NCBI GenBank assembly: GCA_030272155.1
Contig: CP126202.1
Coordinates: 3,307,501-3,371,500 of the forward strand
DNA length: 64,000 nt
Reading direction: 5' to 3'
DNA from: Tetradesmus obliquus
Lineage: Eukaryota > Chlorophyta > Chlorophyceae > Sphaeropleales > Scenedesmaceae
The notes under the pieces were generated by a model. The model had not been told where the DNA came from. It ran no database searches and worked only from the letters and a program-made list of their open reading frames with translations. Shown here piece by piece: positions 2,445 to 64,000 of the stretch (position 1 is the first letter of the stretch; every line of letters begins with the position of its first letter). The translations under genes and the position numbers were made by a program.

Positions 2445-2742
2445 CTAGTACCCAAACTTGGCGTTCAGGCTGCTCTTGCCATCCCCTGTCTGGTCAGCAG
2501 GCGGCAGCCAGCCTCCCACCTCATCCTCCTGCCCCTGCTGCTGCCCACCCTGCTGCTGCTGCTGCTGCTCATCGTCTTCACCTATGGGTGCTCTGTGGCT
2601 AGTCAGGATGGCGATGCTAGCTGCTACGCGTGCTGCTGCTGCGGCGTTGACGTTGCTGCCGCCCTTTTCGCCTGCTGCTGGCTGTTTCGCTCCAGGGGCC
2701 TTGAAGCCAGGCGGTGGCATGGCAGGGCCCTAGCAGTCATGC

Positions 2743-2791
<49 letters not shown>

Positions 2792-5700
2792 CAGCAGCAG
2801 CAAGTTGACAGCAGTCAGCCACCAGGCAGTTCTTACCACTTCTTAGTATGTGATGTCAGTGACAGCCAATGCCAGCAACATGTTGCTCCGTTTTATGCAC
2901 CTGCAACATGGCGCGATCGCATTGCAACAGCTGCAGCTGTGCCAGCTTAATCCCACCCTGCAAGAGGACCACCCCCGCTCACCTTGACAGCTCGCTTGGC
3001 TGCTGCTGCAACCACCGGCTGTGCAAACTCCTTCATCAGCTGCTGCGCTGCTGCCTGTGCTGCTGTATCACCACTGCCCTTCCCAGCAGCACCTGCAGCA
3101 CCCCCAGCTGCTGCGGGTTTGCTGCTGCCAGGCGCTGCTGCTGCTGCTGCTGCTGTTGGTGCTGTCTTCTGCCGCAGCTGTGCTGTTGCTAGCAGGCCCT
3201 TGGGTTTGATCACCACTGGCACTGGCTTCACTGCTGCTGCTGCTTTGCTGCTGCCAGCCTCAGCCTGCTGCCGCTGCTCATTGTCTGCATCGCCCTGAGC
3301 TGCAGCTGCTGCTGGTTGATCTGCTTCCTCCTCCTCCTCTTCTGGTGGCAACTCTTCTCCAGCCTGCGAAAGCAGACATCACCGTCAGATACACACAAAC
3401 TGAGCAACGCAGCACTGCTGGCATCCACAGCAATTGCTAATCAACATAACATGCAAAGTGTAGATTCTACCACGCAGCAGCTGCTGCGCTAAACAAGGGC
3501 ACCAGTCAGCCCGCACTGCCGGCCGTCTGCAAAAAAGAGTAGCAAAGCTGTTGTTTTGGGAGCCAAACACAACACTCACATGCGCAGCAGCCCAGCCGGC
3601 TCGTTGAGCAGCCACTGCTGCTGCCCTCCGCTGCCTATCAGCTTCTAGCGCCTGCTTGGCAGCAGCAGCACGTGCAGCCGCTGCTGCTGCTGCCGCCGCA
3701 TCCCCGCCAGTTGCTGCTGCTGCTGCTGCTCTGCTTCTACTGCTGCCGGGTGGCTTGTACCAGCCGTCAGGGTCTGCTATGTGTATGAGGCGGTCTGTGC
3801 GCTGCAGCTGCTGGTTGATTGCCTCTAGCTCTTTTTGCAAAGAGCTCAACTGCCGGCAAAGCAGGCACAGGTGAGAAGGACAAAGCGGGCAGAAAGCAGC
3901 ATATGTTAGCAGCAGTCGCCACTTTTCAAATGGATGTGCTCGCAGATGTGTGTATTACAGCCGGCCGGCTGGTTCAGACATGAACAGCCGTGTCGCTAGC
4001 TGTCCACTGCTGTACATTCCCATGGAGCACCAACTAGGCCCCTTCTCTCGCGTCAGGACCTGCCCACACCACCATGCTCTCTCCCGCCTCACCCGATCTA
4101 GCTCCATCTTCTCTGTCACATCCTCCATGAAGGCATCTAGGGTGTCCACACCATCACCAGCAGCAGCAGCAGCAGCACCAGCAGTAGGGTCGGCAGTGTC
4201 TGCGGCTGCACTGCCATCAGCAGCAGCAGTAGCAGCAGCGCTGGTGCCCCCTGCATCCCCTTGCTGCTGTTGGCTGCTGCTGGCGGCTGCTTGCTGCTGC
4301 TCCAGCAGCTGCTGCTCTGCTGCAATGGCTGCCTCAAGACGCTGCACCTCCTCTAGCAGGGCAGACCTGCGGCAGCAGCGGCAGCAGCACGCTCCATCAG
4401 CACAGCGAGTGATGGAGACCAAGTTTGTGGCGGAGCTCCTGTGAAGCAAGCTTTAGCATTGTGCAGTGCTACGCAACGCACCAGACACTTAGGCATTGCC
4501 CGCGCCCCACCTCTTCGCGTACAGCGTCTCTGCTGACTCCACCTGCTGCGGCGCCTTCTCCTTGGCCTTGGCTGCTGCTCCCGCCTTCTTCTTAGGCCCT
4601 CCAGCAGCGCCGCCAGCAGCGACCGTGCGGTCGTAAAACTCATCGCCGCTGTCGCTGGCGTCTGCGTATTCATCGTCGGAGTCACGCTGCCGCTTGCGCT
4701 TCTTTTTGGCTGCTGAAGCGTCTTTGCTGTCCTTGGCAGCCTGCGGACGGTAGGACAGTAGGCAATAAAGCAGTAAAGCACCATGCAGAGCGTTGCTCCC
4801 AAAAGCACTGTTACCTCCGTGTCTTTAGGCAGAGCAGATGGGCCTGCCTTTCATGCAAGGTCATGTAATCTATTCTTAAAACTTAACAGTGAGATCTGAC
4901 TGCAACCGTGGAGACTGTTGAATCACCTGCTTGCCCTTGATGCTGTCGGTGATGCAGTCGGTGAGCTCCTCTTCAAGCTCCTCCAGCTCCTCACGCAGCG
5001 CATCCAGCGCGCGCTCGTTACGCACCTGTTACAAGCAGCATTTTCATAGCAGTTGGTGTAACAACTGACACAGCATGCCGGAAAACTCCTCTTCAAGCTC
5101 CTCCAGCTCCTCACGCAGCGCATCCAGCGCGCGTGCGTTACAAACCTGTTACAAACAGTGTTAGATGATAGTTAGTGTATCAGCTGACACAGCATGCCGG
5201 GGGGCTCGTCTTCAAGCTCCTCCAGCTCCTCACGCAGCGCATCCAGCGCGCGCTCATCACGCACCTGTTACAAGCGGCGTTACATAACAGTCGCTTCAAC
5301 ATGTGCTGCACCATGCACAGGATCGCCCCAAATGGCTGATGCCACGCGCGCAAGTATCACCAGTGACCAGGCGCCTGTCAAATGCAGCTCTGCACGAACG
5401 GGTATGATCACAGAAACAAGCAGTCAGCATGAGAGGCACACGCAGCCCAGCAGCAATGCAGCTGCCGCAGCCTCACCAGTGTTGAGGCCTGGCCCCGTAT
5501 GAGCCATCAAACTGCACAAGCTGGCAATGCAAGCTTCAAATGGGACAAGTAGAGCTTTAAACCACACTGCCGCCGACTCACCAGTGTTGAGGCCTGGCCC
5601 TGTGTCAGGCCTCCCTCGGTCTTCTCCTTGGCGGCAATCTTGGAGCACTCAGCCTCTAAGTTCTTGATCTTGTACTCGCGCTTGCTGCACGTTGTTCAGC

Positions 5701-8542
5701 GAAGTAGCCGGCGGCAGCAGCAGCAGCAGCAGCAGGGCGTGTGTAAGGTACATGATCACCAAGATGCTGCGGCAGACTGAGGGGCAACAAAGGAAACAGC
5801 AGCCGGCCGCCAACTATGTGAGCCCTTCCGCAGCCGCATAAGTGACCACCCTCAACCCAAAAAATCACACACCAGCCGCCTCAACTAGCCTCACCGGATC
5901 TTGTCCAGCAGCTTGGTCTGCCGGTCCGTGAGGTTGCTGCTGTGCTTGTCCACATAGCTGCGCCAGTTGACCTCCTTGGCAGGCCCTCCTTCATCTTCTT
6001 CCTCATCATCCAGGGACATGCCCCAGCTGGCGCCGCCTGCTGCAGAGCTTGCCAGTGCTGCCTCCATTTGTGCACGCGCTTTCAACTCGTCTGCGTCCTT
6101 GCGCCTCTGCACAAACACGGGCATTGAGGAGTAAGTCTTAGTAGGGCAGCTATGGGATGTGCTGAGCTGGGTGAAGCAGCCTCCATCTGTGTGCTCTTTT
6201 AGCTCGTCTGCTTCCATGCGCCGCTACATGCATACACGCGCAACCAGGGTTCGCGGTTACATATGTATAGTGACTATGGGTTCTGCTTAGGCAGCCAGTG
6301 CAGCCTCCATCTATGCGCGAGCTTTTGACTCGTCTGCGTCCTTGCGCCTCTGCAGACGTTGGGATAACAAGGGTTGTGAGGTTTGTCTGTAAGGATTTAA
6401 GCTGGTAGCTACAGGTGCTGCAGAGCTCGCCAATGCTGCCTCCACTTTTGCACGCGCTTTGAGCTCATCTGCATCCTTGCGCCTCTGCATACATCAGGGT
6501 TTGAGGTTCCAGTACAGCGCTGAAGCAGCCACTGGCTGACAGGTTTGCATGCGGCGTGTAGCAAAGTAACCCAGAAAGCCTACTCTATCCAATTGTTGGG
6601 TTTCGGCGCTACGGAACATACACGAGGTGAACACCACATGCAGGCTCAGCTGATACAGTGTAACAATATAAGTTTTATGACCCTAAGTTTGTCACCTGTG
6701 CCGCCTCCAGCAGCTTGAGCTGCTTCTGCTGCTGCTTGCTGAGCCCCTCCTGCGGCATCAACTCTGCTGGCCCAGTCAGCACATACATCCGGCTGCTCTG
6801 GCCAAAGCGGATGGTGTCACCGACCCTGCAGCACACATGCGCAATGAGTTGAAGTTTAACTTACGTGCCCGCAGAAATGGAACACGGACACACAGTCAAC
6901 AGCATGTTCAGAAATCTGGGAACAAAGCAGCTGAAACAATACCTGGAGTCGAAGAGAGCTGGACATCCAGACAGCAGTTTGCTGCACTCAGCAGCAGACT
7001 GCGCAACACATGCATGTGTGATCTTGCAGCAAGCACGCTTGCTCTCAGGGGAAACATACCTGATGGGTGCGTGCACGCGCGACTTGAGCCTGTTCCGGTT
7101 GAGGAAGGTGCCGTGCGTGCTGCCGCAGTCATATAGAAACACTTCATTGCTGCCGGCCTTGAACTGCAGCACTGCACATGGCAAGTTCCAAAAAGCATAG
7201 GGGTGCAGCAGCCAGCGGCAAGACAGAGCGTGGTGAGCCAGCGCAACACTGAAGCAGTTGAAGAAGGTACACCACTGCTGCCGCCGCTGCAAGTAGAACG
7301 ATGGGAAACAGGTTGCAGCAGAAAAAAGTGCAGCTAAGCATGCTCAGCCACAGCAGCGCTGCAGGGTGTACATTGCAAAAGGAATGTACAGATCAGCAAG
7401 ACAAGCACGCTGCAATCAAACAATGGCAGCTCATGCCTGGTGGCCACACAACACATCACCACTACAGGTTCCGACGCAGCAAAAGGGCAACACAGCCCCG
7501 CCCAGCCCAGCCCAGCACAGCGAGCACTCAGCGCCGAAGTGGGAGGCAGCCAGCCACACCCGCCAACAAGGGGAGCGACCCACGCGCTGTCCTCGCACCT
7601 GCATGCAGCCTTGATGCCGAGGGGTGCTCCAGCAGCAGGTCAGCAGTAGGGCTGCGGCCACAGGTGAAGACCGCCTGACCCTGCAGCGGCCGCTCCTCCA
7701 CCAGTGTGCCATTCTTGAGTACTTCTAGTCCAAATTCAGCACTGCAGCAGCAGCAGCGGCAGCAGCAGTAGCAACAGCAGCCGGCTCAGTTGCTGTTTGC
7801 GCCTGCGCGTGCTTTTTGAGCGTCACACACCTTCACCCGCTGCACTGCCTGATGATGTTGCCTACAATGCAGTGCAACAAATGCGCCACACCGCTGCCGT
7901 AATAAGTGCAGCAACAAGCAGTCGAGCCAGACACGTGCATAGCAGAACATGAACAGCAAAACATATGTAGCCCCTGACATATACTGCTCACTCACCCGTC
8001 AGGTGGGCCTGACCATTCAGGCTCTTCATAAGTCCCAGGCGCTGCAGGAGCTGTTGGAGCGCCATGCCCCGCTGGTGCTGCTGCCGCAGGCTCTGCCTGC
8101 TCTCCCTCGTGCTCCCCGCTTGCTGCATCTACTGCATCTTCTGGTGCGTTGTTGTCCCTAGCAGCCTCTGCCGCAGCTGCTGCAGCGTCACGCTCCTGCT
8201 GTGCTGCTAGGACTGCTTGTTGGATGGCCCTGTCGCGTTGACCAGGCGTTACAGACGCTGCTGCAACAGCAGCAGCTGCAGCAGCCCTGGCCTTGGCCCC
8301 TGCATTCGAACATAACAAATGCTCCACGACGTGATTTGATGTATATGTGCTGCTTGTGCTTTTGGCGTTGACAGAGCTGCTCTTGTATGCTGCTGCTGGC
8401 AAGCTGATGTACAGCAGTAGCAGGCAGCCTGCTGCCGCAACAGCAGTAGCACTGGCAGCAGCAGCTCAGCTGGCAGAGTGAGCAGGGTGCTGCAGCAGAG
8501 CAGCTTCAGCGTACCTGCATCTCTGTTGGCTGGAGGTAGCAT
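2445..8542 (-). CDS. SLC4A1AP: Kanadaptin-like FHA domain protein
   Basis: Thirteen exons give about 856 residues: 8542-8515, 8299-7996, 7741-7599, 7171-7060, 6825-6696, 6106-5895, 5684-5582, 5025-4927, 4740-4511, 4366-4093, 3849-3580, 3363-2983 and 2729-2445. The frame is kept across every GT-AG junction. After an Ala-rich lead comes EEPEWSGPP, then the FHA domain (LEVLKNGTLVEERPL, FTCGRSPTADLLLEHPSASR, LYDCGSTHGTFLNRNRL), a basic/Gln coiled stretch, a kanadaptin-specific middle (WGMSLDDEEEDEG, GDEFYDRT, DTLDAFMEDVTEKMELDR) and the diagnostic C-terminus WLPPADQTGDGKSSLNAKFGY. FHA domains bind phosphothreonine peptides; kanadaptins are mostly nuclear and linked to RNA processing. Exons 6 and 8 have extra partial copies in the preceding introns. 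The family call is firm; the start (a 28-base first exon) is less so. Confidence 0.93.
2743..2814 (-). repeat. (CTG)n tract in last kanadaptin intron
   Basis: On the coding (minus) strand this is a CTG/GCT run of roughly 20 units ending a few bases before the acceptor of the last exon at 2729. It occupies the place of a polypyrimidine tract. Confidence 0.85.
5081..5273 (-). repeat. Two extra copies of the start of kanadaptin exon 8
   Basis: Units at about 5081-5152 and 5205-5273 repeat the acceptor and first two thirds of exon 8 (ERALDALREELEELE) with a period of 119-120 bases, flanking intron included. Both lie upstream of the working exon in the sense of transcription and lack its end and donor, so they are intronic decoys rather than alternative exons. 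They differ at a few residues (VCNARALD and VRDERALD against VRNERALD). Confidence 0.88.
6160..6488 (-). repeat. Three extra copies of the start of kanadaptin exon 6
   Basis: Degenerate copies of the RRKDADELKARA segment lie near 6160-6225, 6295-6353 and 6415-6488, upstream in the sense of transcription of the working exon that begins at 6106. The farthest copy keeps an acceptor-like AG and reads RRKDADELKARAKVEAALA; the others are damaged. Confidence 0.8.
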
Positions 8543-9372: not shown

Positions 9373-9806
9373 ATGGCGAGCAACGGTGCTGCAGCAGCAG
9401 CTGCTGTTGACCCAAGGCTGGTCAAACTTCGGGCAGCAATGGCAGCAGCAGATGGTGGCCAGGGCGTTGCTGCATACATCGTGCCTACTGAGGACCCCCA
9501 CATGAGCGAGTACCCGCCTGACCACTTCAAGCGCAGGGAGTACATCTCAAGGTGCGTATGCGGCAGTCCAGGATGTTACATGTTGAATTGATTTCATCTA
9601 TGACCACTACAAACTCTGCGCAGTGTTGTGCAGTGAGTGGTGTTGCAGGATGCCACTGACTTGAGCTTGTCGGGCAGCTGCACTGGAGCTTGTCCATAGA
9701 CATGTGGAGCTGGTGTGCGCCAAGTGTCGTGCTTTCACACCTCGGTGTTGACGAAGGCACTTGCAATGTGACCTGTGGCAGGTTACTGGAACCTGTTCGT
9801 CCTGCC

Positions 9807-9840
<34 letters not shown>

Positions 9841-10404
9841 ATACTAATGCTGCTGCTGCTGTTGCCGCCCCCGCAGCTTCACTGGCTCTGCAGGCACTGC
9901 TGTCATCACAGCCGAGCAGGCGCTGCTGTGGACCGATGGCCGCTACTTCCTGCAAGCCGAAACAGAGCTGGGCCCCGGCTGGACGCTGATGCGCGGAGGC
10001 ACTGGCAGCTGCCCTGAGGTGCGCTTCAAATAGAGCTAAATGACAGGGGTCGGAGGCAGCAGCAGCAGCAACCCAGGATATAGAGAGTGTTAGCAGGGGC
10101 ATCAGCTGCCTTGCGGTGTGCAGGTGCAGCAGCAGCAACCAGGGCGAGAACAGTGGTTACAGCCACAGCAGGTGCAGCTGGGCCCTGGCTGGACACTCAT
10201 GCGCGGAGGAACGGGCAGCTGCCCTGAGGTGCGCCGCAGCCATTTCAGCTCATGAGGGGGAGCACGTACAGCTACACTGCAGTGGGCAGCAGCAGAAGGG
10301 GTGGCAGCAGCAGCAGTAGCAACTGCAGCAGCAGCAGAGGGTGCAGCCACAGAAGTTACAACTCTTGAGGAAAGTCATGGGCAGCTGCTGTGAGGCGCGC
10401 AGCC

Positions 10405-10437
<33 letters not shown>

Positions 10438-12308
10438 CTACTGAGGGCCAACAGCAGGGCGCGGCACACTGCAGCTGCCATTCGCTGGATGTGTCTGCAC
10501 GCATGTGCTGCAGTTGCAGCTACAATGGCTGCTCTGCCTGCTGCCTTGCACCGCTGCTCGGTCAAAACACTAGTGTCTGCTGCTGCTGTGGCTGTCCCGT
10601 CATTTGTCGTCTGGCTGCACCTGCCAGAAAATGGCTTCTATGACTTCTGCAGTTCAACGAATGGCATGCTATCAGCCTCATTGAGGACTTGCGCGCGCTG
10701 CTGCTGTAGCTTTCCTGTCGCCTGACTGTACCTGACTGCATCTGGCCGCATCTCATGCTGCTGCCTGCTGAGATCAACGACCGGCTGGCTGGCTGACAGC
10801 CTGCCTGAGGGCTCCCGCATCTGCCTGCTCTTTAGTGCTGCTCATAAACAACACCCTTGACGGCTGGCTGCATTTGCTGTTGTTAATGTTGCAGATCAAC
10901 GACTGGCTGGCTGACAGCCTGCCTGAGGGCTCCCGCGTGGGCTTTGACCCCTTCTGCCACACAGTGGAGGCAGTCAACAAGCTCAAGTCAAAACTGCAGG
11001 TGGCGATTGGTTCTGCCGGGTATTGGTTGTTTACATAGATGTATGTTGGCTTTGACGCCCTTTTTGCAGACAGTGGAGGCGGTCAACAAGCTCAAGTCAA
11101 AGCTGCAGGTATGTTTGTTGAGTTTCTCATGAATCTGCGCATCTGGTTGTGACTTTGCAGTATCTCTGCTGCCACTGCTGCTATAACAGCGGCTGCTACT
11201 GCGCTCTACTACATTCATGATGCGCCATTCATATCATGCGCTCCCTCCCATGTTTGCAGGAGAAGGGCCTGGAGGCAGTGCCGCTGCTGGCTGATGGCAA
11301 CCTGGTGGACCAGGCCTGGGGCGCAGACCGCCCAGGCCTGCCTCCCTGCTGTGCTTGTGCTTGCAGGAGTGCTAATCACCTTTTTTTGAGTCTGCTGTCA
11401 CTGCTTTCACCTCACCATGCTTGCCCTGTGCTTTTTCGCCCTTTTGCAGGAGAAGGGTCTGGAGGCAGTGCCGCTGCTGGCGGATGGAAACCTGGTGGAC
11501 CAGGCCTGGGGCGCTGACCGGCCAGGCCTGCCCACAGCGCCGCTCCGTGTGCATGCTGCAGAATGGGCAGGGGCCAGCATCCAGCAGAAGGTGGACGAGG
11601 TGAGCACATCTCGACGCATGCAGCTGGGTGTCAATGTCTTGGCTGCTTCTCAGCTGGTTTGCTGGGACATGCGTGCAGAGCCTGCTGTGGGGTGTGGTTT
11701 GAGAAAGGGTGCATGCTGCAGAATGGGCGGGCGCCAGCATCCAGCAGAAGGTGGATGACGCGAGCACACCATGAACTATAGTATAGTACAGCTCTGGTAA
11801 TGTGCGGCTGGGTGTTGTGACATACCCCGCAGACCAAGCGTTTGTTGTAGTTCAGGCAAGACTCCAGCATGCCCTTTGTACTTCTGCAGGCTTCACCCCG
11901 GCATCAGCCTGCCTTGGCTGCTGCTGCTGCTGCTGCTATACTCTGCCTTCAGCGCTGTGCTTGCCTGTGATTGAACTGCTTTTGCTGCTGCCGCCGCCGC
12001 TGCTGCTGCTGCTGCCACCAGGTGCGCCAGAAGCTGGCTGGCGTGAAGGCCGACTGCTTCCTGGCCACCACGCTGGATGAGGTGGCATGGCTGTACAACC
12101 TGCGCGGCAGCGATGTGCCATACAACCCTGGTGGGTAGAGTATTCATTGAGGGATTGGCTAAAGTCTTCACGGGGTTATGTCAGCTGGGCCCACTGCTTG
12201 TCGGCTACTGTGGTGAATGTGGTGGATGAGGTACGCGCTGGTGTCCCTGACCAATGCTGTGCTGTACACGAACCCTGAAATGTTTGTGCCAACACGATTC
12301 TTGAGTCG

Positions 12309-12347
<39 letters not shown>

Positions 12348-12451
12348 AGTGTTTGTCTCATATGCTCTGGTGTCCCTCACTGATGCCGTGCTGTACACAA
12401 ACCCTGAAAAGGTGACACCATCAGCATCCCTGAATCAAACTGCTGCTGCTG

Positions 12452-12482
<31 letters not shown>

Positions 12483-15400
12483 AGTGTTCGTATCATACGC
12501 GCTGGTGTCCCTCACCGATGTTGTGCTGTACACCAATCCGGAGAAGGTCACACCAGCAGTGGCGGAGCATCTGAAGGCAGGCGGTGTGGTGGTGCGGCCG
12601 TATGAGCAGCTGGTGGCGGATGTGAAGGCTAAGGCATCTGCCAAGGCTCGCATTGCGATGGACATGTCCAAGGTGGGTGTGGGGCGGCTATCGTGACTCG
12701 GATATTGATTTAGGGACACATGCAGAGATGCACAGCAGAGTGCATGCTTGCAAAGCAGAAGCAAGTTGCAATTGGGTTGGAAGTTTGGTGTCACCGGCAG
12801 TGGCGGAGCACCTGAAGGCAGGCGGCGTGGTGGTGCGGCCATACGAGCAGCTCGTGGCAGATGTGAAGGCCAAGGCATCAGCCAAGGCACGCATCGCAAT
12901 GGACATGTCCAAGGTGGGTGCGGTGTGTCAGAGGTGGTGCTGTTTGGAGTCTTGTGAAAGGGACGAACAACAGAGATGCACAGGTAGCTTGAAAGCTGGC
13001 AAAGCAGGTGGATACATCTGCCTTGTGTGTTTTCAAGGGTAGTGCGCATGTTCAAGGTGGAGGCGGAGCACCTGAAGGCAGGCGGTGTGGTGGTGCGGCC
13101 GTATGAGCAGCTGGTGGCGGTTGTGAAGGCCAAGGCATCAACCAAGGCACGCATTGCAATGGACATGTCCAAGGTGGGTGTGGCGCTGCTGTTGTAGCTC
13201 AGACGGTCTGGAAGCACAGACAGATATGCACATATAGTTTGCAGGCTTGCAAAGCGTGCAGCTAGATGCATCTGCCTTGTGTGAGTTACGCGCGATGGGG
13301 GTGCTGGATGCTTTAGATGATGGTGGTGCCGCCGTATGAGCGGCTAGTGTCTCGTACCATCCGCACAGGTATTGGCTGCGGCCCATCACTGCAATTGCTC
13401 TTCTGTTGCCGTGCTGCAGGTCAGCTATGCTGTGTTCCAAGCTGCGGAAGAGGCAGCAGCTGCTGGGCCGCGCGGCCGCAAGCGCAACGCAGCAGATGCC
13501 GTCGTGCCAGCAGCAGGTGCGGCCTGCATGACGATGACGAGCAGCTTGCTTTCGCTGTTAGTACAGCTGCTAGCATGGATTCGCAATACAGCCCTGATGT
13601 CATGTGGTTGGGTAATAACAAGTCCGCTGTACTTGTTGCTCTTGATGGCTGCTGACCACCAAGTGTGCACCACTGCAATTCTTTGTGTAAAAACATTGAA
13701 GCATGTAACACCAGACTCTAGGAGATCTGTATGCTGTTTTGCAGAGGCACTCGCGCGCATGCTCGCTATAAATTGCCTATTAGTAGTGCTGGTGCTTTGC
13801 AACAATTGTGCAATGATCACACGCAGGTGGCAGCACGGCGGTGGTGGACCTGGTGTCTTTATTTGCTGCTGCCAAGGCCAGCATATCTGCATTCCCAGAT
13901 ACATATGCTTTTTGTTTCTGCGCAGGTGGCAGCAAGGCGGTGGTGGACCTGGTGTCGCCCATCGTGGCCGCCAAGGCCATCAAGAACGGCGCGGAGCTGG
14001 AAGGGATGAGGCAGGCGCACCTGAGGGACGCAGTCGCAATTTGTGACTTCCTGCAGTGGCTGGAGGCCAAGGTGTGTATGGTTGTGTGCATATGAGCCCT
14101 GTGTCAATTCAGGCAGGTTCAGGTTGAAGCTTTGGTTTCAGCTGGTAAGCTTGAGGGCATGCGCCAGGCGCACCTGCACGACGCTGTGGCAATCTGCGAC
14201 TTCCTGCAATGGCTGGAGGCGAAGGTGCGTGTTTGAGAACGATAGCAGGGTGAAGGATGCGGGTGCCATTTGCGACTGCCTGGATTGTGGACGCCACCGT
14301 TCGTGATGAGGCATGGGGCGTGGGGTGGATCTGAAGTTATCAAAACATGCTTTTCAAGGTTCGCTGACGCAGGGGAAGGTTGACCTGGAGCTCAGCGGCA
14401 GGCGCAAGCAGCAGCACGGCTTCATCGTTCACCATGTGTGACTGGCTTGTAACATCTGACTGCTGCTGGTGCTGCTGGTTGCTGCAGATTGCGTCTGGTG
14501 CCACACCAGCAGAGGTGGAGGTTGACCTGGAGCTGACAGGCAGGCGCAAGCAGCAGCAGGGCTTCATCTCTCACCTTGTGTGACTGGCTTGTAACATCTG
14601 ATTGCCAATGCTGTTGCTCCTGCTGGTTGCCGCAGATCGCGTCTGGTGCCACACTAACAGAGGTGGAGGTTGACCTGGAGCTGACAGGCAGGCGCAAGCA
14701 GCAGCCGGGCTTCATTGAGCCAAGCTTCCCCACCATTGCAGGGGCCAACGGCAACGGGGCCATCATCCACTACCGCGCACAGGAGGGAAGCTGCAAGTGA
14801 GACTGAAGCAGGGTTCATCATAGTCCTCGTCTGCCGCCGCAAAGAACATGCTGTTGGTGTTTCTGGGCGTGCCCTGCTGTGCTGCTCTTTTTGCATCTGC
14901 TGCTGCCTCGTCAAAACTCACTTGTGTTCCGGCAGGCCTCCTGCAGTCAACACACACAGCGCTGCAAAAGGCTCATCCTTGGCCACGTTTTTCGTGCTGC
15001 CAGCCTGCAGACCTCGTGTCCCTGTCTTTAGAACCAGAGCATCACCTACAAAGCTACGCTACTGCACATACATTCAACTCGGCCTCAGCATAAACGTATC
15101 TAACGCTGATGTTCCCTCCTTTATGTTTGCAGGACTGTGGACGCCAAGACGCTGCTGCTGATCGACTCTGGCGGCCAGTACGACTGCGGCACCACAGACA
15201 TCACGCGCACCATGCACTTTGGCAGCCCCAGCGAGCACCAGCGGCGCTGCTACACGCGCGTGCTGCAGGGCCACATCGCACTCAGCCAGGTAGGAGCTGC
15301 TCTTGGATCCTCTCAGGATGTGCATGGCCATGTGCAAGCTGCATGCATTGCTGGGCCTGTGCAGGCTTTATAGGTATGAGCTGGTGGCTGATCAGCACTC

Positions 15401-17424
15401 TCACAGACGCCGCTGCTTGCTGATATGTTCTTGCATCCGCGTTTGCCCCTGCTGCACTGCCGTGCACTGACCAGGCTATGTCCCCCTGGGGCACGCCAGG
15501 CACTGCCATGGACACTTCAACCGCCCTGCAGTCCTCCGTGCCCTGCTGACCTGCTGCCTTGCTGCCTTGCTGCTGCACTGCTGCCTCGCTTGCAACAATG
15601 AGCAGGCTGTGTTCCCTGAGGGCACCCCTGGCACCGCCATTGACACTTCAACCTCCTTGCATTCCTTTGTGTCCTGCTGACCTGCTGAACTGCCGCATTG
15701 CTGCCCTGCTGCTGTGTCTGCAGGCCGTGTTTCCTGACGGCACCCCCGGCACCGCCATTGACATTTCAGTCTGCTTGCATTCGCTCGTGTGCCGGTGTTG
15801 ACTGCTGAACTACTGCCTTGCCGCTGTGCCTGCAGGCTGTGCTCCCTGAGGGCACGCCAGGCACTGCAATTGACATGCTGGCTCGGCAGCCACTGTGCCC
15901 TGTTGAACTGCCGTCCTGATGAATATGCCCCTGTTGCTGTACGTCAGGCTGTGTTCCCTGAGGGCACCCCCGGCACCGCCATTTGCATGCCAGCCTGCTT
16001 GCAATCCTTCATGCTGTGCTGCCTTGCCGCTGCCCTACTATGCATGCAGGCTGTGTTCCCTGAGGGCACCCCTGGCACCGCCATCGACACTTCAACCTCC
16101 CTGCAGTCCTGCTGACTTGCTGCCTTGCTGCACTGCTGCCTTGCTGCTGCATTGCTGCCTCGCTTGCAACAATGAGCAGGCTGTGTTCCCTGAGGGCACC
16201 CCTGGCACCGCCATCGACACTTCGCCCTGCTTTCATTCCTCCGTGCCCCTGCTGTACTGATTAACTGCTGCCCTGCTGAATGGGCCGTGTGCACGCAGGC
16301 TGTGTTCCCTGAGGGCACGCCAGGCACCGCCATTGACACGCTGGCGCGGCTGCCGCTGTGGAGGGATGGCCTCAACTACAGGCACGGCACAGGTGGGTGG
16401 GTGGCTGTCTACCTGTCTGTGAATGTGTGGTTGGGTTGAAGTGCGGTTGTGGAGGGACGGGCTCAACTACAGGCACGGCACAGGTGGGTGGGCTGGCTGT
16501 CTACCTGTCTTTGGGTGCGTGGTGCAGTTGAAGTGCGGTTGTGGGGGGACGGGCTCAGCTAGAGGCACGGCACAGGTGGGTGGGCTGCTGCTCTGTCTTT
16601 GTGTATGGGTGTGTTTGCCTGTCTGCCTGTCTGCCTGCCTGTCTGCCTGCCTGCCTGTCTGTCTGTCTGTCTGTCTGTCTGTTCGTTTATTGGTGCGTGT
16701 GGGCAGGCACCTGTAACATCATGCTCCTGTAAGCGGTTGGCTCTGGTCATGCACCTGCTGCACGTCACGAAACAGTCAGGCGGCTGTACCCGTGCACTGT
16801 GTGCTCACCATGATGCTGCTGGCGCCGCTGCAGGTCACGGCGTGGGTGCTGCACTGAACGTGCATGAGGGCCCCCAGAGCATCAGCACGCGCTACTGGAT
16901 CACCACCCCACTGCAGGTGAGGACAGGGAAACTAGGGCCTTCTGTGGGAGCTCAAAAGCTTGCCAATAAGTGGCCGCAGTGTGGCAGACAGCTGCCATGC
17001 AGACGGTAGCATCAACTGCAGCTGCGCTGGTACTCCTGCTGAAGCGGGCTGTAGCTGTCCTGCAAGCATTCGAAAGCTGGCTTCACCGCAGGCCATGCAG
17101 CAGTGCTGCACAGCTGGCCTGTAACTGCAGTAGCGCCGCATGCCAGCAGCCTCCACTGCGAGCTGCTATCGAAGTGCATAGCCACAGTTCTCTCTGCATG
17201 CATGCGCTGTTCTGCTGCGCCTCAGAGCGATTTGTGCATGCTGTACGCCCTGCCAACAACTTGAAGCGCACCCAAAAGCGGACTGATCAATGCGGTGCAC
17301 ATCATGCGTGTGCAGGTGGGCATGATCTGCAGCAATGAGCCGGGCTACTATGAGGACGGCGGCTTTGGCATCCGCGTGGAGAACCTGCTGGTCATCAAGG
17401 AGGCAGACACCGAGTTCAGGTGAA

Positions 17425-17501
<77 letters not shown>

Positions 17502-19445: not shown

Positions 19446-19512
<67 letters not shown>

Positions 19513-47689: not shown

Positions 47690-50600
47690 CCCGGCACCCA
47701 AGCGGCTGCGGAGCACGTTCTCGCGAAGAAACAGGAGCTCAGAAGATGGTGATGGCAGCGGCGGCGGTGGCAGCAGCAGCAGGCCGGGTGGCTTGGAAGG
47801 CCTCATCCAGTCAGCAGCAGCAAGCATCACTGGCCGTGGCAATGCGTCTCGGCGTGCAGATGTATCAAGCTCAGCCGCCGCTGCAGCAGCAGAAGCAGAA
47901 GCAGGAGCAGGTCCTAGTAGTTCAGCTGCAGCAGCAGCGGGGTGTAGCAGTGGCCAGGGCGCCGGCAGCAGCAGCAGTGAGTTTGACACGCAGTTTGGCT
48001 TGGTCAACTCTGCGCAGCTGCTGATGAAGCGGGAGCTGAGCCTGGGCAGGCAGCAAGGCTTCAGTAGGCAGCAACAGCGGCACATGTGCTGCCACAGGGC
48101 CCTACCACTGCACCCAAGCAAGGTGTGGGCACAGCTGATGTAGTTGCAGATTGTGTTTGTCGGTTGTGTGCTTGTTGTTGCTGATCAAACATGCTGTGTT
48201 CGCTTGGTGAGTGGTGTGCACATGTGTTGCCACAGGGTGCTGCCGCTGCTTCCCAGCAAGGTGAGGGGTGAAGTTTAATTTCTCATGTGCCATGTTTGTT
48301 GTTGGTCATTGGTTGTTGGCAACGTAGTGGGCCAGTCTGTTGAGTGCTGGTTTGCAATGTGCTGCCGATCTGGCAGCATATGAAATCTACACTGTGTTTT
48401 TGCATACCCTATATGCATCAGCTGCGAACATTCGTCAGTCCTCGTTGGGTGCATCAACTGTATGGATCTGTGCATGCTCTTTTTGTGCAGCAGTGCATGC
48501 AGCCGATGTCGTTACTGTGATGCAGCATGCATGCGATGTGCCCTGTGTGACATAGCCTGCTGCGCTGCTGCTGCTGCTGCTGCTGTGCTGCTGCGCACCC
48601 TTGTTGCCATCGCACATGCAGGTCCGTGACAGCATGCGCAGCCGTGCCTACATCGGGCAGTACTCCGCAAGCGGCGATTTCTACATAGCAGCATTCCAGG
48701 TGGGAGCTGACTGCCTTGCATACAGCAGCATGCCTGCGGTGCGCTGCGTGTGATTGCAGCTGTGTTGGGGCACACAGTTTGTTCGGCTGGAGTCGCAGGT
48801 GCAGGTCTAGCCCTAGCAGAATATGCATGGCGCATCCTTCCTGCTGCTCCAGCTGTTGGCGTTGTAAGCTCTGCCTGGGTGCTTGTGTGTTTCTTGTCAG
48901 CGCCCGTTCGCCATGCATCATTGTGCCATGCCATCCCACAGCAGCGTGACTGGCAGCTGCGCAATGACCTGACCACTGCACTGCACTGCTCTGCTCTGCT
49001 CTGTGTTGTACTGCCGCGCCGCAGGACCGCCGTGTGCGGCTGTACGACACGCAGCGTGACTGGCAGCTGCGTAAGGATGTGACCACGCGCATGACTCGCT
49101 GGACCATCACAGACACCTGCCTCAGCCCTGACCAGCGGCTGCTGGTCTACGCGAGCATCAGCCCGGTGGCGTTTGTGGTGCACGTGGGCAGCAGCGGCGA
49201 CCAGGTGTGTAATTCGCTTGACACAGCTTCATTGTGTGTTTATTGTAAAGGGGCTTCATCACCTGTTGGCTGTTGGCAGAACTTGAAACTGCAGTGGGAT
49301 GCTGGTTGTGGCGGTCAAAGGTCAGTTCTAGTAGGCAAACCCGCTGCTGGTTGATGCGCCATTGCTTTGGTGGCCTTCTTGATGCACGTGTGAGCCAGCT
49401 GCGTCGCGCACTTCGCAGCACACTCCCTGTGCAGCAGACACGCTGTGCACCTGGTACTGCACCTCGGTAACTGCCACCTGCTGCATGTGCCATTGCAATA
49501 TGGCTCGGCGCGTACAGGTGGAGTCGCTGGCCAACATCACAGAGCTGCATGAGCCGCTAGCGCTCCCAGCAGCATGGCTGCCTGCGCATAGTCTCAGTGG
49601 AACGATTTTGAACTGCAATTGCACACTTTGAATTGCACATCGCAGGTGGAGTCGCTGGCCAACATCACGGAGCTGCACGAGCCGCCAGCACTTGATGGCA
49701 GCATGGCCCCGGGTGCCGGCAGGTTTGATAATTTGAATTTGCAAAACCACAAACTTAAAACCTTCGACTTCTTTCAATCCACAGGTGGAGTCGCTGGCCA
49801 ATATCACTGAGCTGCATGAGCCGCTGGCTCTAGACGGCAGCATGGCCCCTGGTGCCGGCAACAACCGCGCCGCCTTTGAGGGTGACGAGGAGTATGACAG
49901 CTGGCGGGGGCGCGACTTTGGCATCTGGAGCATCGCCTGGAGCCCACAGGGCGGGCAGCTGATTGCAGGTGCGGTGCAGTGACAAGATGCTGGTTATGGC
50001 GTAGGGTCCCTTTACGACAGTTGGCGTGCGTGCGACATGGATTGGGACAAGTGTACATGGTTGTGGCTTTGCATTTTGAATTGCTTGCGTGCGCTGACTT
50101 GGATGCTGGCAGCTTTGCATGGAGGGTGGCGAGGAATATGACTTTGGCATGTGGATCATGTTGTCACAGCTGTGTGTGCATATCAGCATTAGTGTTGGTG
50201 CCAGGCCCCTGCCGTGCAATGCTGCGCTTTGGGTGCAGTAGCATGTACTATGGCCTGACGTGTGCTCCGCACTGCTCTGTCTGTGTGTGCAGGCACCAAT
50301 GACAACAGCGTTTATGTGTACGACATTGAGTTCAAGCATTGCCTGGCCTGATGCGCTGACTGTACTCATCTGTGTGTATGTGCACAATGCAGGCATCAAC
50401 GACAACAGCGTGTACGTTTACGGCATGCAGTTTGCGCGTGCCGCATAGTGCGGATTGCCTTGTTCATCATAGGCGCCAGATGATGCTCAGCTGCTCCAAT
50501 CTGCTCTGAAGTGGCGGCTCCTTTGATCGGTCTCTGCGTGCAGGCACCAATGACAACAGCGTGTACGTGTACGACATCGAGTCCAAGCACTGCCTGGCGC

Positions 50601-53192
50601 GCCTCACCGGCCACGGCAACGACGTCAACGCGGTCGCATACCTGCAGGTGAATGCTAGGCTGCCCCTTGCTCCGTTGAGGCGCCAGAGAGCTCATTGTTT
50701 GAGGGAGGATAGTTGCATGTTGGTCCTGGCACCATCTCAGATGTATGAGCCACAACAGGGTGAACACATGGTCTGAGACCATATAAAGGAGTGAACAGAG
50801 AGCTTAGACTGGTTCCAACGACACATGCGCTGCAGCTGAGCTGCGTCCCTACTGTGCCTGTGGCATCAGCAGCTGGTATGGACACACATCGCAGGTAGCT
50901 GTTGTGTACCTGGGTCTGGCAGCTGTTGTGTACCTGGCTCACCGGCAGTGCTGGCACCCTTCCTGCTGCTGCTGCTGTGTCCTGCAGGGTGACGGGTCTG
51001 ACGCGAGCAGCGCTGCTGCTGCCAGCCCACACCTGCTGGTCAGCGGCAGCGATGACCACATGGTGCGGCTGTGGGACACACGATTGAGGGACAGGGCGGG
51101 CGGCAACAGCAGGAAGCCCCAGGGCGTGCTCGTGGGTGAGCAAATTGGAGCAGTACATGATCTGTTTTTGTGTGTGGTTGTGTGTTGCCAAGCAGTCCTT
51201 TGCTTGGCATGGTTGACTTTGTTTCTCCTGTCCGGCTTCTTGGTTCGGGCTTGAAGCTGCAATGCACTGCAAGCTGTGCAGTCGTTCGTGCGCTGTGATG
51301 ACCACATGGTGCGGCTGTGGGACACGCGCGTGAGGGACAGGGCTGGCGGCAACAGCAGGAAGCCCCAGGGCGTGCTCGTGGGTGAGCGAAACGGAGCAGT
51401 ACATTATCTGTTCTTGTGTGTGTTTGTGTGTTGCTGAGCAGTCCTTTGCTTGTCAGGTTTGAGTTTGTTTCTTGTGTTTAGCTTCTTGGTTGCCGGCTTG
51501 AAGCTGCAATGCACTGCAAGCTATGCATGCGGTTGTGTGTTGTATTGACCACATGGTGCGGCTGTGGGACACGCGCGTGCGGGACATGGCAGGTGACAAC
51601 AGCAGGAAGCCCCAGGGCGTGCTCGTGGGTGAGTGAGGCAGTTGACAATGTTCGTTGTGCAATTGTTGCTTTCCTATGGTTGTTTTGGCTGTCTGTCGCA
51701 TGTCGCATGGTTTGGTGCAAGCTGCCGGACATGGATGTGTTTGTGGCGTAATTGGGCTCCCAGGCAGCAAAAGGGGAGTGCTTTGTTTGCTGCGTCAGCT
51801 TGACACTGTGTTCTTCTTGTCTGCAGCAAGCAATCAAGCTGGTCTGCGCACATATACCCTCTTGACCCTTGCTTGTCACTGGCATTGCAGGTCGCACGGA
51901 GGGCATCAAACACCTCTGCCCCAACGGCAGCACCTTTCACCTCATCAGCAACAGCAAGGACCAGAGCAACACTGCTGTTATGTCCACGCTCAGACTTGTA
52001 TGCCATTAATCGCTGATGCAGGCCACACTGAGGGCATCACGCACCTGTGCCCCAAGGGGGACGGCCACCACCTGATCAGCAACAGCAAGGACCAGAGCAT
52101 AAAGCTGTGGGACGTGCGCAAGGCGCTGAGCCAGGCTGAGGCCACGCAGCAGGCGCGGCAGCGGCCGCAGATCCCGCACTGGGACTACCGCTGGGAGGAG
52201 TACCCAGGTGAGGTTTGTGTCGCATACACACTCGTTTGAGCTGGTTTGAATGTAGTGCGAGCCTGCTCGTGCATTGTCGTGCATGGTTTTAAGGTGTGTG
52301 GGACGTGCGCAAGACGTTGAGCCCAGCTGAGGGCTTCAGCAGGCGCGGCAGCGGCCGCAGATTCTTTACTGGGACTACAGATGGGAGGAGCACCCAGGTA
52401 GGTTCTGATGGGCTGCTTTGCGTAACATGCGCCACATACACTCCGGTTTGAACTGGCTTGTATGTTGTGTGTGAGGTCAGTTGTGTTTGTGTTGTCTTGC
52501 ATGTTTGTGAATGGTGTGGGACGTGCGCAAGGCGCTGAGCCAGGCTGAGGCCACGCAGCAGGCGTGACAGCGGCCACAAATACCACACTGGGACTACCGC
52601 TGGGAAGAGTACCCAGGTGAGGCGTTTTGCGGCATGATGTAGCTGTATTGCTAAAGTGCATGCACACACTCCTTATGCTTTCCAGTAATACTGGCCTAGT
52701 AGGCCCGGCAGGGGCCTTGGATTCCGCACTGTCACTACCGCTGGGAGGAGTACCCAGGTGAGGTCAAAAGGTGTGCAGTTGTGTTACAAATGCGTCGTGA
52801 ATGACACGGAGCATCACTAAGACATGCATGTGTCTGCCTGCTTCGCCCTGTCTGTTGTGTTTTTCCTGCCGTCACAGCTGCCGGCTACAACGTGGTGAGC
52901 CTGGGCGAGGTGTCGCTAATGTCGTCCTGCACTGATTGCACCTGCACGTGCCTGCCTGTGCAATTCTTTTCTTGCAGCTGCCGGCTACAATGTGGTGCAC
53001 CCTGGTGACGTGGCGCTCATGACGTACCGCGGCCACGCAGTGCTGCAGACGCTCATCCGCGCCTACTTCAGCCCGGCACACAGCACAGGCCAGCGCTACG
53101 TGTACGCAGGGTCGGCAGAGGGCGTGATCAACGCATGGGATGTCGTCAGCGGCAAGCCGGTGAGCTTGCCGTTGCTGCTGCATGCCTGTGGC

Positions 53193-55123: not shown

Positions 55124-55136
55124 TGTAGGGACTGCT

Positions 55137-60640: not shown

Positions 60641-60716
60641 GACGGCTGTACCTCCTGTGATAGTTGGCGTGATGTAGGAGAACTACAGCAGCAGCAGCAG
60701 CAGCAGCAGTAGCAGC

Positions 60717-60750
<34 letters not shown>

Positions 60751-61567: not shown

Positions 61568-61708
61568 GTAAAAAGCTTGCATTGGCATGTAAACACAGTT
61601 TGCAATAGCTGAATGCAACAGTTGCTCACTCACGCATCTAGGAGGCGCCCCCTGCCACCATGGCTGCTGTCTTCAACTTCATATATTCTGATGTGCTGCT
61701 CCTCCTGC
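61568..61708. repeat. Dispersed 141-bp direct repeat, copy 2
   Basis: Matches 2050-2191 almost perfectly and in the same orientation, including GCCACCATGG and the codons for MAAVFNFIYSDVLLLL; both flanks differ. Confidence 0.85.
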
Positions 61709-61989
61709 TATTACTTGTTCTAGTATTACCTGCAATCACAATAAAACCTGGTCAGTGCAAGTATGGCTCGCCGTGCTCGCATACCCGAAAGTGTGTTTTG
61801 ATGATTTGCGATAGGTCTTGGCAGCACAATGAACGCAGCCATGTTGCAGCTGTGCAGCGTGTAAGGGTGCAGGTCAGGTGGTGGCGCTGCTGTTATTGCA
61901 CCCCTACACCTGCTGCTGCTGCTGCGTGAGGCAACCCTCAACCATCCTGCTGCTGGCAATCAATGATTAACTTCCACCAAGCCGGTCCC

Positions 61990-62040
61990 AGGATGAGCTG
62001 CCTGTAAATCCATCTGCAGCTGCTGCACCAATGCAAGCCT
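61990..62040 (-). repeat. Downstream copy of the last exon of the right-edge gene
   Basis: The sequence AGGATGAGCTGCCTG to CTGCAGCTGCTGCACC resembles 62090-62130, the C-terminal codons (QLQAEYRQLI) of the adjoining minus-strand gene. It lies past the stop, as in the other genes of this window. Confidence 0.7.
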
Positions 62041-62077
62041 CAGATTGCTGCTGCAGGCAACCACTACTGAGGTGCCA

Positions 62078-64000
62078 TCAGGCAGCATCCATGATCAGCT
62101 GCCTATATTCCGCCTGCAGCTGCTGCACCTGGCTGAGCATGAGCTCCTGCGGCTGCCGCTGCAGGAAGGCTGACGAGTGCTGCTCAGCATGCCCCACAGC
62201 TGCTGCAAACCCCTGCGACAGCCTGCAGCAGCAGTGACAGCAGCAGCAGCAGCAGAGGGGCTGTTGGCGGCTGGGCAGGCTCAATGCAGCGCAGCAAGCG
62301 TTGCAGCAGGGGAGACACCACACCGCCCGCAGTTGTAGGCTTGTAGGCGTGCAAACTAAACAGGCATGGCATGGTTATCGTGTGCATGCCTTGGTTCTGT
62401 GCATACAAGCACTGCAAGAAGCTGCTGCTGCATGGCATAGCTGAGTGTGTGTGCTGGTGTCCCACCTGGCCAGCAGCTGGTGCTCAAAGTAGGTTGCTGC
62501 CAGGTGCTGGTAGTCAGCAAGCAGCAGCGCCACCTGCGCGATCATGCGTGTGCATAGCCACATGCATACGGCAGCAGCCGCAACAGTATTGTCAGCTATG
62601 TTTGGCTACAGAGCAGCACATAAAGGATTGCAGGAACAGCAAGGCAAGCAGCTGCCCTGCTTGCAGAGCTGAAACTAAATAATACTGTACTTTATGCTGC
62701 CACATCCACCTAAACACAGCATTTCAGCAGCAGCTGGCCTCATGCCAAGCAGCTGGCGATTTCAAAGGCTGCCAAACATCGGCGCCCAGCCGCTCCTACC
62801 TGTGCTACATGCAGCTGCGCCACTGCGCTTGACATCAAATGCTGCCGCGCAGCAGACACCAGCACGTCCGGCGGTATGCTGCTGCTGCTAGTGAAGCTGG
62901 CAGCATCCGTACTGCCACCTGTTGTACTGCCATCGTCTCCCAGCAGCTGCTGCCCCAACCTTGCAAGCTCCTGCAGTACAACACCAGGTGCCATACACGG
63001 CGCAGCAACAGCAGCAGCAGCAGCACCAGCTGCTGATGGCCCTGCAACTGCAGCAGCGCTGGCAGTAGCTCCTGCTACTGCTACTGCAGCAGGCTGCTGG
63101 GGTACTGCTGGTAGGCCTAGCTGTGTGCGTAGAGCCACGAGGGCAGGGTTGTTGACCTGACTGCTGGCTGCAGAACTGCTGCTGCCTCGCTGTGCTGCTG
63201 CTGCTGCTGACGGCAGCAGGCTTGGAGCAACACGAGACAGGGCAGCTGGCAGTGCTCCAGCGAGTGCGCTGCAACAGAAGCGAAGCAAGGGGCAAAGCAG
63301 CAGCAGCGGGAGCAGCAGCAGCAGGGCAGGAGGCAGCTTCAATCAGCAGGTTCTTGGTGAGTGCGGACTGCGCTGCCAGCACAGCCCATAGAGCAGCATG
63401 CATCACAATCATAGCCTGCCGCTCCGCCCGTGCTGCCGCATGCACCCTCCAATTGCTGCGCTCTCGCACAAAGCACCCGGTACCACATCAATTATGCACG
63501 ATTGCCAAAGCAACATCCAGCATGCTCCCCTCCTGACGGTATATCCGGGCCTTGCCCATTGCCACACTGCGCCCCACTCACCCTGCCTGCCCCTCCCTGC
63601 CAGCTAGCAGCGAGTTGACTGTGGTGGCCATAGTGCTGCTCACTGAGCTGCTAAGCTTGTTGATGGCATCAGCAGAATATGCTGCGGGGTTGCGAATCAG
63701 CTTTGCAAGCTCCCCAGAGCCCAGTCCAGCATCCATAAGAGCTGCAAGGGGCTGGCTGCTGCTGCTGCTGCTGCCGCCACATGCCGGGCTGGGCGGCTGC
63801 TGCTGCAGCTGCTGCTGACCGTATGCAGGGGCAGCATAGGCAGCAGGGGCGCCTGGGTAGGGTGGTGGCAGCTGCACTTGTGGCGGCGGTGGTGGCGGAG
63901 GGCCTGCTGCTGCTGCTGTTTGGTCTGCTGCTACTACTGGGAGCGCCTGTTGCTGCTGCTGGTGTAGTGAGCTGCTACTTGCGTGTTGTGCTCCTGCAGC
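62078..64000 (-). CDS. Unrecognised Pro/Gln-rich protein (3' part, 5' end beyond window)
   Basis: Exons seen: 64000 (window edge) to 63582, 63268-62800, 62533-62466 and 62222-62078, in phase at each junction; stop TGA at 62078-62080. The visible part starts with a Gln/Pro region (PPPPPPQVQLPPPYPGAP), then LAALMDAGLGSGELAKLIRN, an Ala/Ser-rich stretch, VVLQELARLGQQLLGDDG, LLADYQHLAATYFEHQLLAR and a helical, coiled-coil-like end (SQVQQLQAEYRQLIMDAA). An extra exon near 63370-63465 (ERQAMIVMHAALWAVLAAQ) reads well and has a phase-compatible acceptor, but I see no good donor. No known family was recognised. Confidence 0.55.

What the first reader, a model, noticed from the sequence alone, without database searches (positions are those of the whole stretch)
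2445..62222. One polarity rule for partial exon copies across the window
In at least seven genes I find more than 30 partial exon copies spanning one splice junction. Without exception, copies of an exon's 5' part plus acceptor lie upstream of the working exon, and copies of its 3' part plus donor lie downstream. This is what random short tandem duplication (about 50-200 bp) would leave after selection for an intact reading frame: a duplication across a junction is silent only if the outer copy becomes intron. It amounts to a steady mechanism of intron growth in this genome. Copies range from near-identical to barely visible, so the process looks continuous.
Basis: partly seen in the sequence, partly recalled or inferred. 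Interest (0 to 1): 0.88.

Follow-up and report, generated by a model that had tools for sequence, protein, structure and literature searches.

The report
Exon-edge repeats inside algal introns
In a green-alga genome many introns carry short tandem copies of the edge of the neighbouring exon; the copies are real and common, but they are tied to exons in a way that random duplication does not explain.

Summary
In the window plus 240 kb from six other chromosomes, 106 of 112 non-redundant one-junction copies obey the rule: donor copies downstream 60:4, acceptor copies upstream 46:2. Introns with a copy are longer (median 371 vs 257 bp).

The polarity follows from the geometry of any tandem duplication, because the intact exon is the copy still joined to the rest of the exon. 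It is no evidence of selection.

Random duplication is contradicted. Of 125 local-duplication clusters 120 include a predicted exon and one is intron-only (two more small intron-only places at pair level), although planted intron-only duplications are readily found. High exon identity does not bring intron homology: 4 of 17 non-array pairs at 0.95 or above show it; simulated flanks 98-100%. Differences are synonymous first: nonsynonymous share 0.21 below 4% divergence, 0.66 above 20%; 0.65 expected for a silent copy. Copy splice sites are nevertheless weaker.

Best reading, moderate confidence: exon-edge repeats renewed by recombination in exon sequence, probably between diverged alleles, then decaying. 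No RNA or relatives were available.

The parts
4964..5291 (-). Array of about 2.7 units (period 119-120) of the 5' edge of exon 4927-5025 of an FHA-domain (kanadaptin-like, name recalled) gene; copies upstream in gene direction
6051..6494 (-). 5' edge of exon 5895-6106 and its copies, upstream in gene direction
9877..10018 (+). Working exon of Xaa-Pro aminopeptidase 1 (APP1-like)
10176..10234 (+). Copy of the 3' part plus donor of exon 9877-10018, downstream; 5 synonymous, 0 nonsynonymous codon differences
10771..10818 (+). Copy of acceptor plus 5' part of exon 10895-10999, upstream, with a 4-bp insertion
11045..11110 (+). Copy of 3' part plus donor of exon 10895-10999, downstream
11253..11342 (+). 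Copy of acceptor plus 5' part of exon 11450-11599, upstream; 5 synonymous, 0 nonsynonymous
11709..11768 (+). Copy of 3' part plus donor of exon 11450-11599, downstream; donor GT changed to GC
12232..12409 (+). Two copies (12232-12280, 12361-12409) of the 5' part of the exon taken here to start at 12485 (the gene finder called 12350-12672 one exon)
12792..13283 (+). Two downstream copies of 3' part plus donor of the exon ending at 12672; pair 12551/12792 has 12 synonymous, 0 nonsynonymous differences in 40 codons
13822..13883 (+). Copy of acceptor plus 5' part of exon 13926-14071, upstream; 2 synonymous, 5 nonsynonymous
14148..14230 (+). Copy of 3' part plus donor of exon 13926-14071, downstream; 10 synonymous, 1 nonsynonymous
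14371..14577 (+). Copies of the 5' edge of exon 14636-14796, upstream
15472..16246 (+). Seven decaying copies of acceptor plus 5' part of exon 16299-16392, upstream
   Evidence: family D8
16442..16615 (+). Copies of 3' part plus donor of exon 16299-16392, downstream (period 91-92)
17744..17823 (+). Copy of 5' part of exon 17895-18018, upstream; its acceptor AG is lost
18094..18141 (+). Copy of 3' part plus donor of exon 17895-18018, downstream, 98% identical, flanks not detectably homologous
27313..27358 (+). Copy of 3' part plus donor of exon 27050-27181 (armadillo-repeat-like gene, name recalled); donor hexamer differs from the working one
29154..29350 (+). Copies of acceptor plus 5' part of exon 29423-29672, upstream
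49514..49721 (+). Copies of acceptor plus 5' part of DCAF11 exon 49785-49968, upstream
51297..51636 (+). Downstream copies (period 246) of 3' part plus donor of DCAF11 exon 50988-51131
51886..51968 (+). Copy of acceptor plus 5' part of DCAF11 exon 52022-52207, upstream
52297..52764 (+). Three downstream copies of 3' part plus donor of DCAF11 exon 52022-52207; the one at 52515 carries a stop codon
   Evidence: (family D20)
52875..52925 (+). Copy of acceptor plus 5' part of DCAF11 exon 52978-53159, upstream

Best explanation
Many exon edges in this alga (Tetradesmus/Scenedesmus-like, an inference) are one end of a small tandem repeat, S-F-S: S is mostly 30-130 bp of exon ending at the splice site, F is intron, mostly 45 bp or more. 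SHOWN on predicted gene models: head-to-tail geometry (so the partial copy must lie on the stated side), anchoring on exons, homology that often stops at the splice site whatever the exon identity, recent arrays that are not whole numbers of units, a spacing floor near 85 bp, synonymous-first divergence, weaker splice sites in the copies. INFERRED: the repeats are seeded by short tandem duplications, but the visible pairs persist because the exon copy is held constant by selection and so stays able to recombine with its partner. Unequal exchange or conversion confined to S renews the copies, adds or removes S+F units, and leaves the old intron flanks unlike. The renewing sequence is often a different functional allele, so a fresh copy already differs at synonymous sites; once cut off it decays in the intron. 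Intron-only duplications have no conserved partner and are lost from view. Net effect: introns lengthen by one unit of roughly 85-250 bp at a time.
For: 120 of 125 clusters include a predicted exon, 1 is intron-only (recheck); power control. Flank homology in 4 of 17 (exon identity at least 0.95), 7 of 22 (0.90-0.95), 9 of 20 (0.85-0.90) and 11 of 23 (below 0.85) non-array pairs, against 98-100% of simulated flanks up to 25% divergence. The recent array at C1 19320-19859 (98%, 4.6 units) ends at the GTGAGT donor, and the intron after its last copy looks unlike the filler between copies (by eye). Nonsynonymous share 0.46 against 0.65 +- 0.02 simulated for a neutral copy and 0.23 if both were constrained, rising 0.21, 0.34, 0.38, 0.46, 0.66 with divergence. 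Fewer indels per substitution in exon parts than in intron parts (0.049 vs 0.154). Own donor score of copies median 5.9 vs 7.2 in working exons, acceptor 3.4 vs 7.9; opposite-side splice sites at background. Two light-harvesting paralogues on C14 align as one block at 88.3% over 1156 columns with the differences concentrated in the intron (by eye), and their preceding intron ends align for about 20 bp only.
Against: Renewal was not seen directly; no reads, strains or relatives were available. By my reasoning conversion within one chromosome would not give the synonymous excess, so the allelic source is an extra assumption that needs very high diversity. Even with diverged alleles I would expect more visible intron-only duplications. 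The spacing floor is not explained. 49 of 104 pairs do show homologous intron flanks, as plain tandem duplication predicts. Blocks C3 (2 pairs) and C4 (12 pairs) show no synonymous excess (0.74 and 0.67), and DCAF11 (0.49) shows less than the aminopeptidase (0.29). All labels rest on a gene finder without RNA support; it called several copies exons.
Confidence: 0.4

Rival explanations
1. One reading: random 50-200 bp tandem duplications; those across a junction are silent because the outer copy becomes intron, and all parts then decay neutrally.
For: Geometry and polarity; a wide spread of ages; frameshifts in 21 of 112 pairs and new stops in 10 of 109; 49 of 104 pairs with homologous intron flanks; in 64 pairs where both parts align, mean exon identity 0.89 vs 0.84 outside the exon.
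Against: 1 intron-only cluster of 125 (two more small places) despite good power; most young non-array pairs lack flank homology; synonymous-first divergence; 2 of 325 pairs spaced under 80 bp.
Confidence: 0.17
2. Copies are, or were for long, used as alternative exon ends, so both copies are under protein-level selection.
For: Synonymous-first divergence; four Xaa-Pro aminopeptidase 1 pairs with 12:0, 10:1, 5:0 and 5:0 synonymous:nonsynonymous differences, though others in that gene have 1:3, 2:5 and 5:4.
Against: Copies lack a second splice site above background, and their own sites are weaker, in synonymous-rich copies too (donor median 2.4 vs 7.2, 7 of 16 below zero; acceptor scores include flank outside S); inclusion would duplicate segments that the matched homologues lack; spacing shows no excess of multiples of 3 (33, 34, 42).
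Confidence: 0.08
3. Assembly artefact: two diverged haplotypes joined in part at exon edges, where alignments break, in a heterozygous or hybrid strain.
For: Splice-site-bounded homology, valid but different donor hexamers, synonymous differences, almost no intron-only class, spacing near short-read length (read length is my guess).
Against: Many copies are decayed (stops, frameshifts, lost splice sites); an old array of eight diverged copies (D8); a smooth range of ages.
Confidence: 0.12
4. Exon-specific breakage (for example RNA-DNA hybrids over exons) makes tandem duplications with one end always in an exon.
For: Exon anchoring; splice-site-bounded homology.
Against: Not tested; does not explain synonymous-first divergence or unlike flanks in young pairs.
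Confidence: 0.13

Closest known systems
[quoted passage not shown] potato RdRp case, PMC4974935, abstract and passages read)
   Same: Short intragenic tandem duplication; in the potato case the duplicated segment spans an intron-exon boundary and carries its splice signals
   Different: There a new intron is gained; here existing introns lengthen and the partial copies are not shown to be spliced. About one in seven predicted splice junctions is affected here (95 of 666).
Short tandem duplications from repair of adjacent single-strand breaks in plants (recalled, not read)
   Same: Local head-to-tail copies of tens to hundreds of bp, sometimes with filler
   Different: Those are, as I recall, not tied to exon edges; here intron-only and intergenic cases are few.
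Minisatellites (tandem repeats changing by unequal exchange)
   Same: Arrays of 2-8 units, similar units
   Different: One unit is a constrained coding exon edge and the homologous part often ends at the splice site; copy-number change was not observed.
Introner elements (recalled)
   Same: Mass change of intron content
   Different: Fillers are not a family: 4 of 77 had hits elsewhere in the 304 kb.

Membership tests
Tandem genomic duplication | Copies head-to-tail, local, same orientation | tested here: met
   325 near direct pairs against 66 far direct and 17 inverted over seven blocks; polarity 106 of 112
Tandem genomic duplication | Homology covers the whole unit at birth, so flanks of near-identical pairs are homologous | tested here: not met
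   4 of 17 non-array pairs at exon identity of at least 0.95; met inside the recent arrays
Tandem genomic duplication | Placed without regard to annotation | tested here: not met
   Intron-only 1 of 125 clusters, two more small places at pair level, with power control
Intron gain by tandem duplication | Copies provide both splice sites of a new intron | tested here: not met
   Opposite-side splice sites in copies are at background; sites inside S were not tested one by one
Introner elements | Same sequence family inserted in many introns | tested here: not met
   4 of 77 fillers with hits elsewhere in 304 kb
Minisatellite | Copy number varies between individuals | not testable with these tools
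   No second genome or reads

The most novel reading that the evidence does not exclude
Exon edges act as permanent master copies for small repeat arrays that live in the neighbouring introns: because selection keeps the exon unchanged, it keeps recombining with its relics, so introns grow from their exon borders outward and carry archived older or foreign alleles of the exon edge.
Probability: 0.3. Interest if true: 0.78.

Novelty: new variant of a known kind. Interest (0 to 1): 0.62.

Why it matters
How introns lengthen is still an open question. A published comparison gives Tetradesmus obliquus a mean intron of 462 bp against 230-302 bp in three related algae and 270 bp in Chlamydomonas (PMC5966456, abstract and passages with Table 1 read; my own models give a mean of 319 bp). 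If about one in seven splice junctions carries an exon-edge repeat, the process can be counted, dated and compared between strains. If the copies archive older alleles, they would record the exon's own history. It also warns gene finders: mine called several copies exons.

Tried and rejected
Polarity as evidence of selection: rejected on geometry. Fast intron mutation as the cause of unlike flanks: not favoured, because in the youngest arrays exon and filler parts are equally similar (0.98 and 0.98 in C1 19320-19859). Filler as a mobile family: 4 of 77 with hits elsewhere. A paralogue elsewhere as donor: for the one gene searched, the 22 listed protein matches lie in this locus. Insertions hiding displaced flank homology: 20 of 77 spaced pairs show filler homology within 1.2 kb, some displaced by about 10-60 bp, so this explains part of the loss. 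Conversion within one chromosome as the cause of the synonymous excess: by my reasoning it leaves the ratio at the neutral-copy value. Mutation hotspots at third positions: overall transition/transversion numbers are alike in exon and intron parts (507/469 and 504/531), not tested by codon position. A lineage test gave unique changes 58 synonymous: 26 nonsynonymous on the working side and 134: 182 on copies; changes unique to the oldest copy can belong to the working lineage, so it is only supportive. I did not use the 14 stops, because some lie in the working model too; the corrected count is 10 of 109 pairs. A pair count by majority label shows many intron-intron pairs near exon arrays (79 strong ones at spacing 80-800); the pair-level recheck finds 40 intron-only pairs, 13 overlapping exon-bearing pairs, 25 in the one C2 array, and 2 elsewhere. 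The first accepted gene-finder training drifted to tiny exons and was replaced. Rfam found nothing in the window. Six searches of the paper library listed no paper whose listing describes this pattern; only PMC5966456 and PMC4974935 were opened, in passages. A DNA search of the gene region returned mainly simple repeats.

Rows dropped before counts: pairs with under 30 exonic columns (on), pairs touching both or no junction, pairs with offset above 700 or under 8 codons in the codon tests, pairs with L/d above the stated cut. The codon simulation assumes a transition bias of 1.9 and 8% acceptance of nonsynonymous changes in the working exon.
Full report
What the window is. The window lies in a 104.7-Mb genome of 17 contigs. 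Three COX1 fragments on two large contigs carry in-frame TAG codons, as expected of the mitochondrial code of Scenedesmus-type algae (code recalled). The species name is an inference. Predicted genes include an FHA-domain protein on the minus strand, an Xaa-Pro aminopeptidase 1 (3ctz) and a DCAF11-type WD40 protein (9ptu); other names rest on recalled motifs.

Sample. I used the window and six 40-kb blocks, joined from four 10-kb stretches each at 1.00-1.04 Mb of contigs C1, C2, C3, C4, C5 and C8. A gene finder written here and trained on these 304 kb gave 61 gene models and 394 exons, hence 333 introns. Donors read AG|GTGAGT-like, acceptors TGCAG|G. All exon and intron labels rest on it; for the two named genes most exons fall in stretches aligned to homologues, but not every edge was checked. 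There is no RNA evidence.

The observation. Self-comparison gives 325 near direct pairs (offset under 1.5 kb) in seven blocks. After reduction to one pair per exon edge, 60 donor copies lie downstream and 4 upstream, 46 acceptor copies upstream and 2 downstream; 11 pairs reaching both junctions and 32 reaching none are outside this count. Five of the six exceptions lie in multi-copy clusters where a copy had probably been called an exon. Exon identity ranges from 1.00 to 0.73. Introns with a copy are longer (median 371 against 257 bp), partly because a copy needs room, and the unit lengths of the nearest copies add up to 20.3 kb of 106.4 kb of intron.

Why the polarity is not informative. If a segment across an acceptor is duplicated head-to-tail, only the downstream copy stays joined to the rest of the exon, so the partial copy is upstream. 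Across a donor it is the reverse. No selection is needed to place it. The rule does speak against whole-exon duplication followed by random erosion, which would leave both kinds on both sides.

Why random duplication fails. Clustering all near pairs gives 125 places: 104 exon against non-exon, 16 exon against exon, 4 intergenic, 1 intron-only, although introns are 106 kb and intergenic sequence 82 kb of the sample. Because clustering can swallow intron pairs, I rechecked pair by pair: of 40 intron-only pairs 13 overlap exon-bearing pairs, 25 form the one C2 array, and 2 are elsewhere, one a 26-bp repeat and one the displaced flank of the exon-edge pair at C8 1337. Of the four intergenic places, one is an AT-rich duplication beside TTA repeats and one looks like a small terminal-repeat element. 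Planted 100-150-bp duplications in real introns are found at 1.00 up to 12% two-sided divergence, 0.97 at 18%, 0.80 at 24% and 0.65 at 30%, planted exon-edge ones at 1.00, 0.98, 0.97 and 0.92 (60 each per level). The deficit is therefore not one of detection under that model.

Where the homology stops. In many pairs the alignment ends within 2-12 bp of the splice site on the intron side. A test of the intron flanks against mismatched flanks finds homology in 49 of 104 pairs. Simulated flanks of the same lengths are recognised in 98-100% up to 25% divergence and 89% at 30%, yet among non-array pairs only 4 of 17 with exon identity of at least 0.95 have homologous flanks, and 7 of 22, 9 of 20 and 11 of 23 in the lower identity classes. 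With arrays included the counts are 8 of 21, 17 of 33, 12 of 24 and 12 of 26. High exon identity does not bring flank homology. Some flanks are merely displaced by insertions or repeat expansion (20 of 77 with filler homology within 1.2 kb; by eye).

Arrays. Recent arrays show full-unit repeats: C1 19320-19859 is 98% identical with period 118, and C5 23006-23702 is 98% with period 129. They are not whole numbers of units (4.6 and 5.4 from the printed lengths). The C1 array ends at its last donor, and the intron after that donor looks unlike the filler between the copies. This is what exchange between two pre-existing S copies would give, not repeated copying of one plain unit.

Codon pattern. 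For 109 one-junction pairs the differences between copy and working exon are 361 synonymous and 309 nonsynonymous codons, share 0.46; a simulation with a neutral copy and a constrained exon gives 0.65 +- 0.02, and with both constrained 0.23. By block the share is 0.31 in C1, 0.41 in the window, 0.43 in C5, 0.50 in C8, 0.67 in C4 and 0.74 in C3, so C4 (12 pairs) and C3 (2 pairs) do not show the effect. By divergence it is 0.21 (15 synonymous, 4 nonsynonymous, 11 pairs), 0.34, 0.38, 0.46, 0.66. Wrong exon models could add to that trend, but in the aminopeptidase the share is 0.29 over 14 pairs, while DCAF11 gives 0.49 over 11. The early divergence thus looks like that of two functional sequences.

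Are the copies used? Probably not. Their own splice sites score lower than the working ones (donor median 5.9 against 7.2 with 21 of 59 below zero; acceptor 3.4 against 7.9 with 15 of 44 below zero), also in synonymous-rich copies, and a second splice site is no better than in random intron stretches. GT is intact in 33 of 46 donor copies and AG in 27 of 36 acceptor copies. Ten of 109 pairs have a new stop in the copy and 21 of 112 a frameshift.

Reading. The facts ask for a process that (i) is tied to exons, (ii) resets similarity in the exon part only, (iii) brings in sequence that had been functional, and (iv) leaves the result unspliced. Recombination anchored in the exon part, often with another allele, does all four; it is an inference. 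Two light-harvesting paralogues in the same genome show similarity ending near a splice site in another setting, but both look like functional genes. Allelic origin needs high diversity, which I could not measure. An assembly mixing haplotypes would imitate much of this and cannot be excluded without reads, though the decayed copies argue against it.

Relation to known work. Tandem duplication across an intron-exon boundary is published, for example for intron gain in a potato gene (PMC4974935, passages read). I found no description of exon-anchored repeats at this frequency in the listings of six searches, which cover open-licence papers only.

Noticed in passing
G000 C6:76024-76742 and C13:2010572-2010844 (L002-L004): COX1 fragments with in-frame TAG codons on large contigs: probably nuclear copies of mitochondrial DNA with a Scenedesmus-type code.
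   Followed up: no
L014 6096-6372 (block C3 16096-16372): Identical 71-bp direct repeats 206 bp apart, starting TGTAACG and ending CGTTACATAC, around a 135-bp core: looks like a miniature terminal-repeat element.
   Followed up: no
G000 C14:4103200-4104500 and C14:4131100-4132400 (L037, L038): Two light-harvesting-protein paralogues with nearly identical exons but strongly diverged introns; suggests exon conversion or strong codon constraint.
   Followed up: partly
window 12310-12347, 12440-12482, 17426-17499, 19447-19511: CTG/TGC runs are common in introns and can form the tract before TGCAG acceptors; their expansion may help to erase intron homology.
   Followed up: partly
window 12350-12672: Two good acceptors (12350, 12485) in one open frame: the gene finder reads through copy and filler as one in-frame exon; about 11 synonymous and 1 amino-acid difference between the two copies (counted by eye).
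   Followed up: partly
block C2 11423-13020 (L010, L011): The one sizeable intron-only repeat array of the sample, 25 pairs, 67-94% identity.
   Followed up: no
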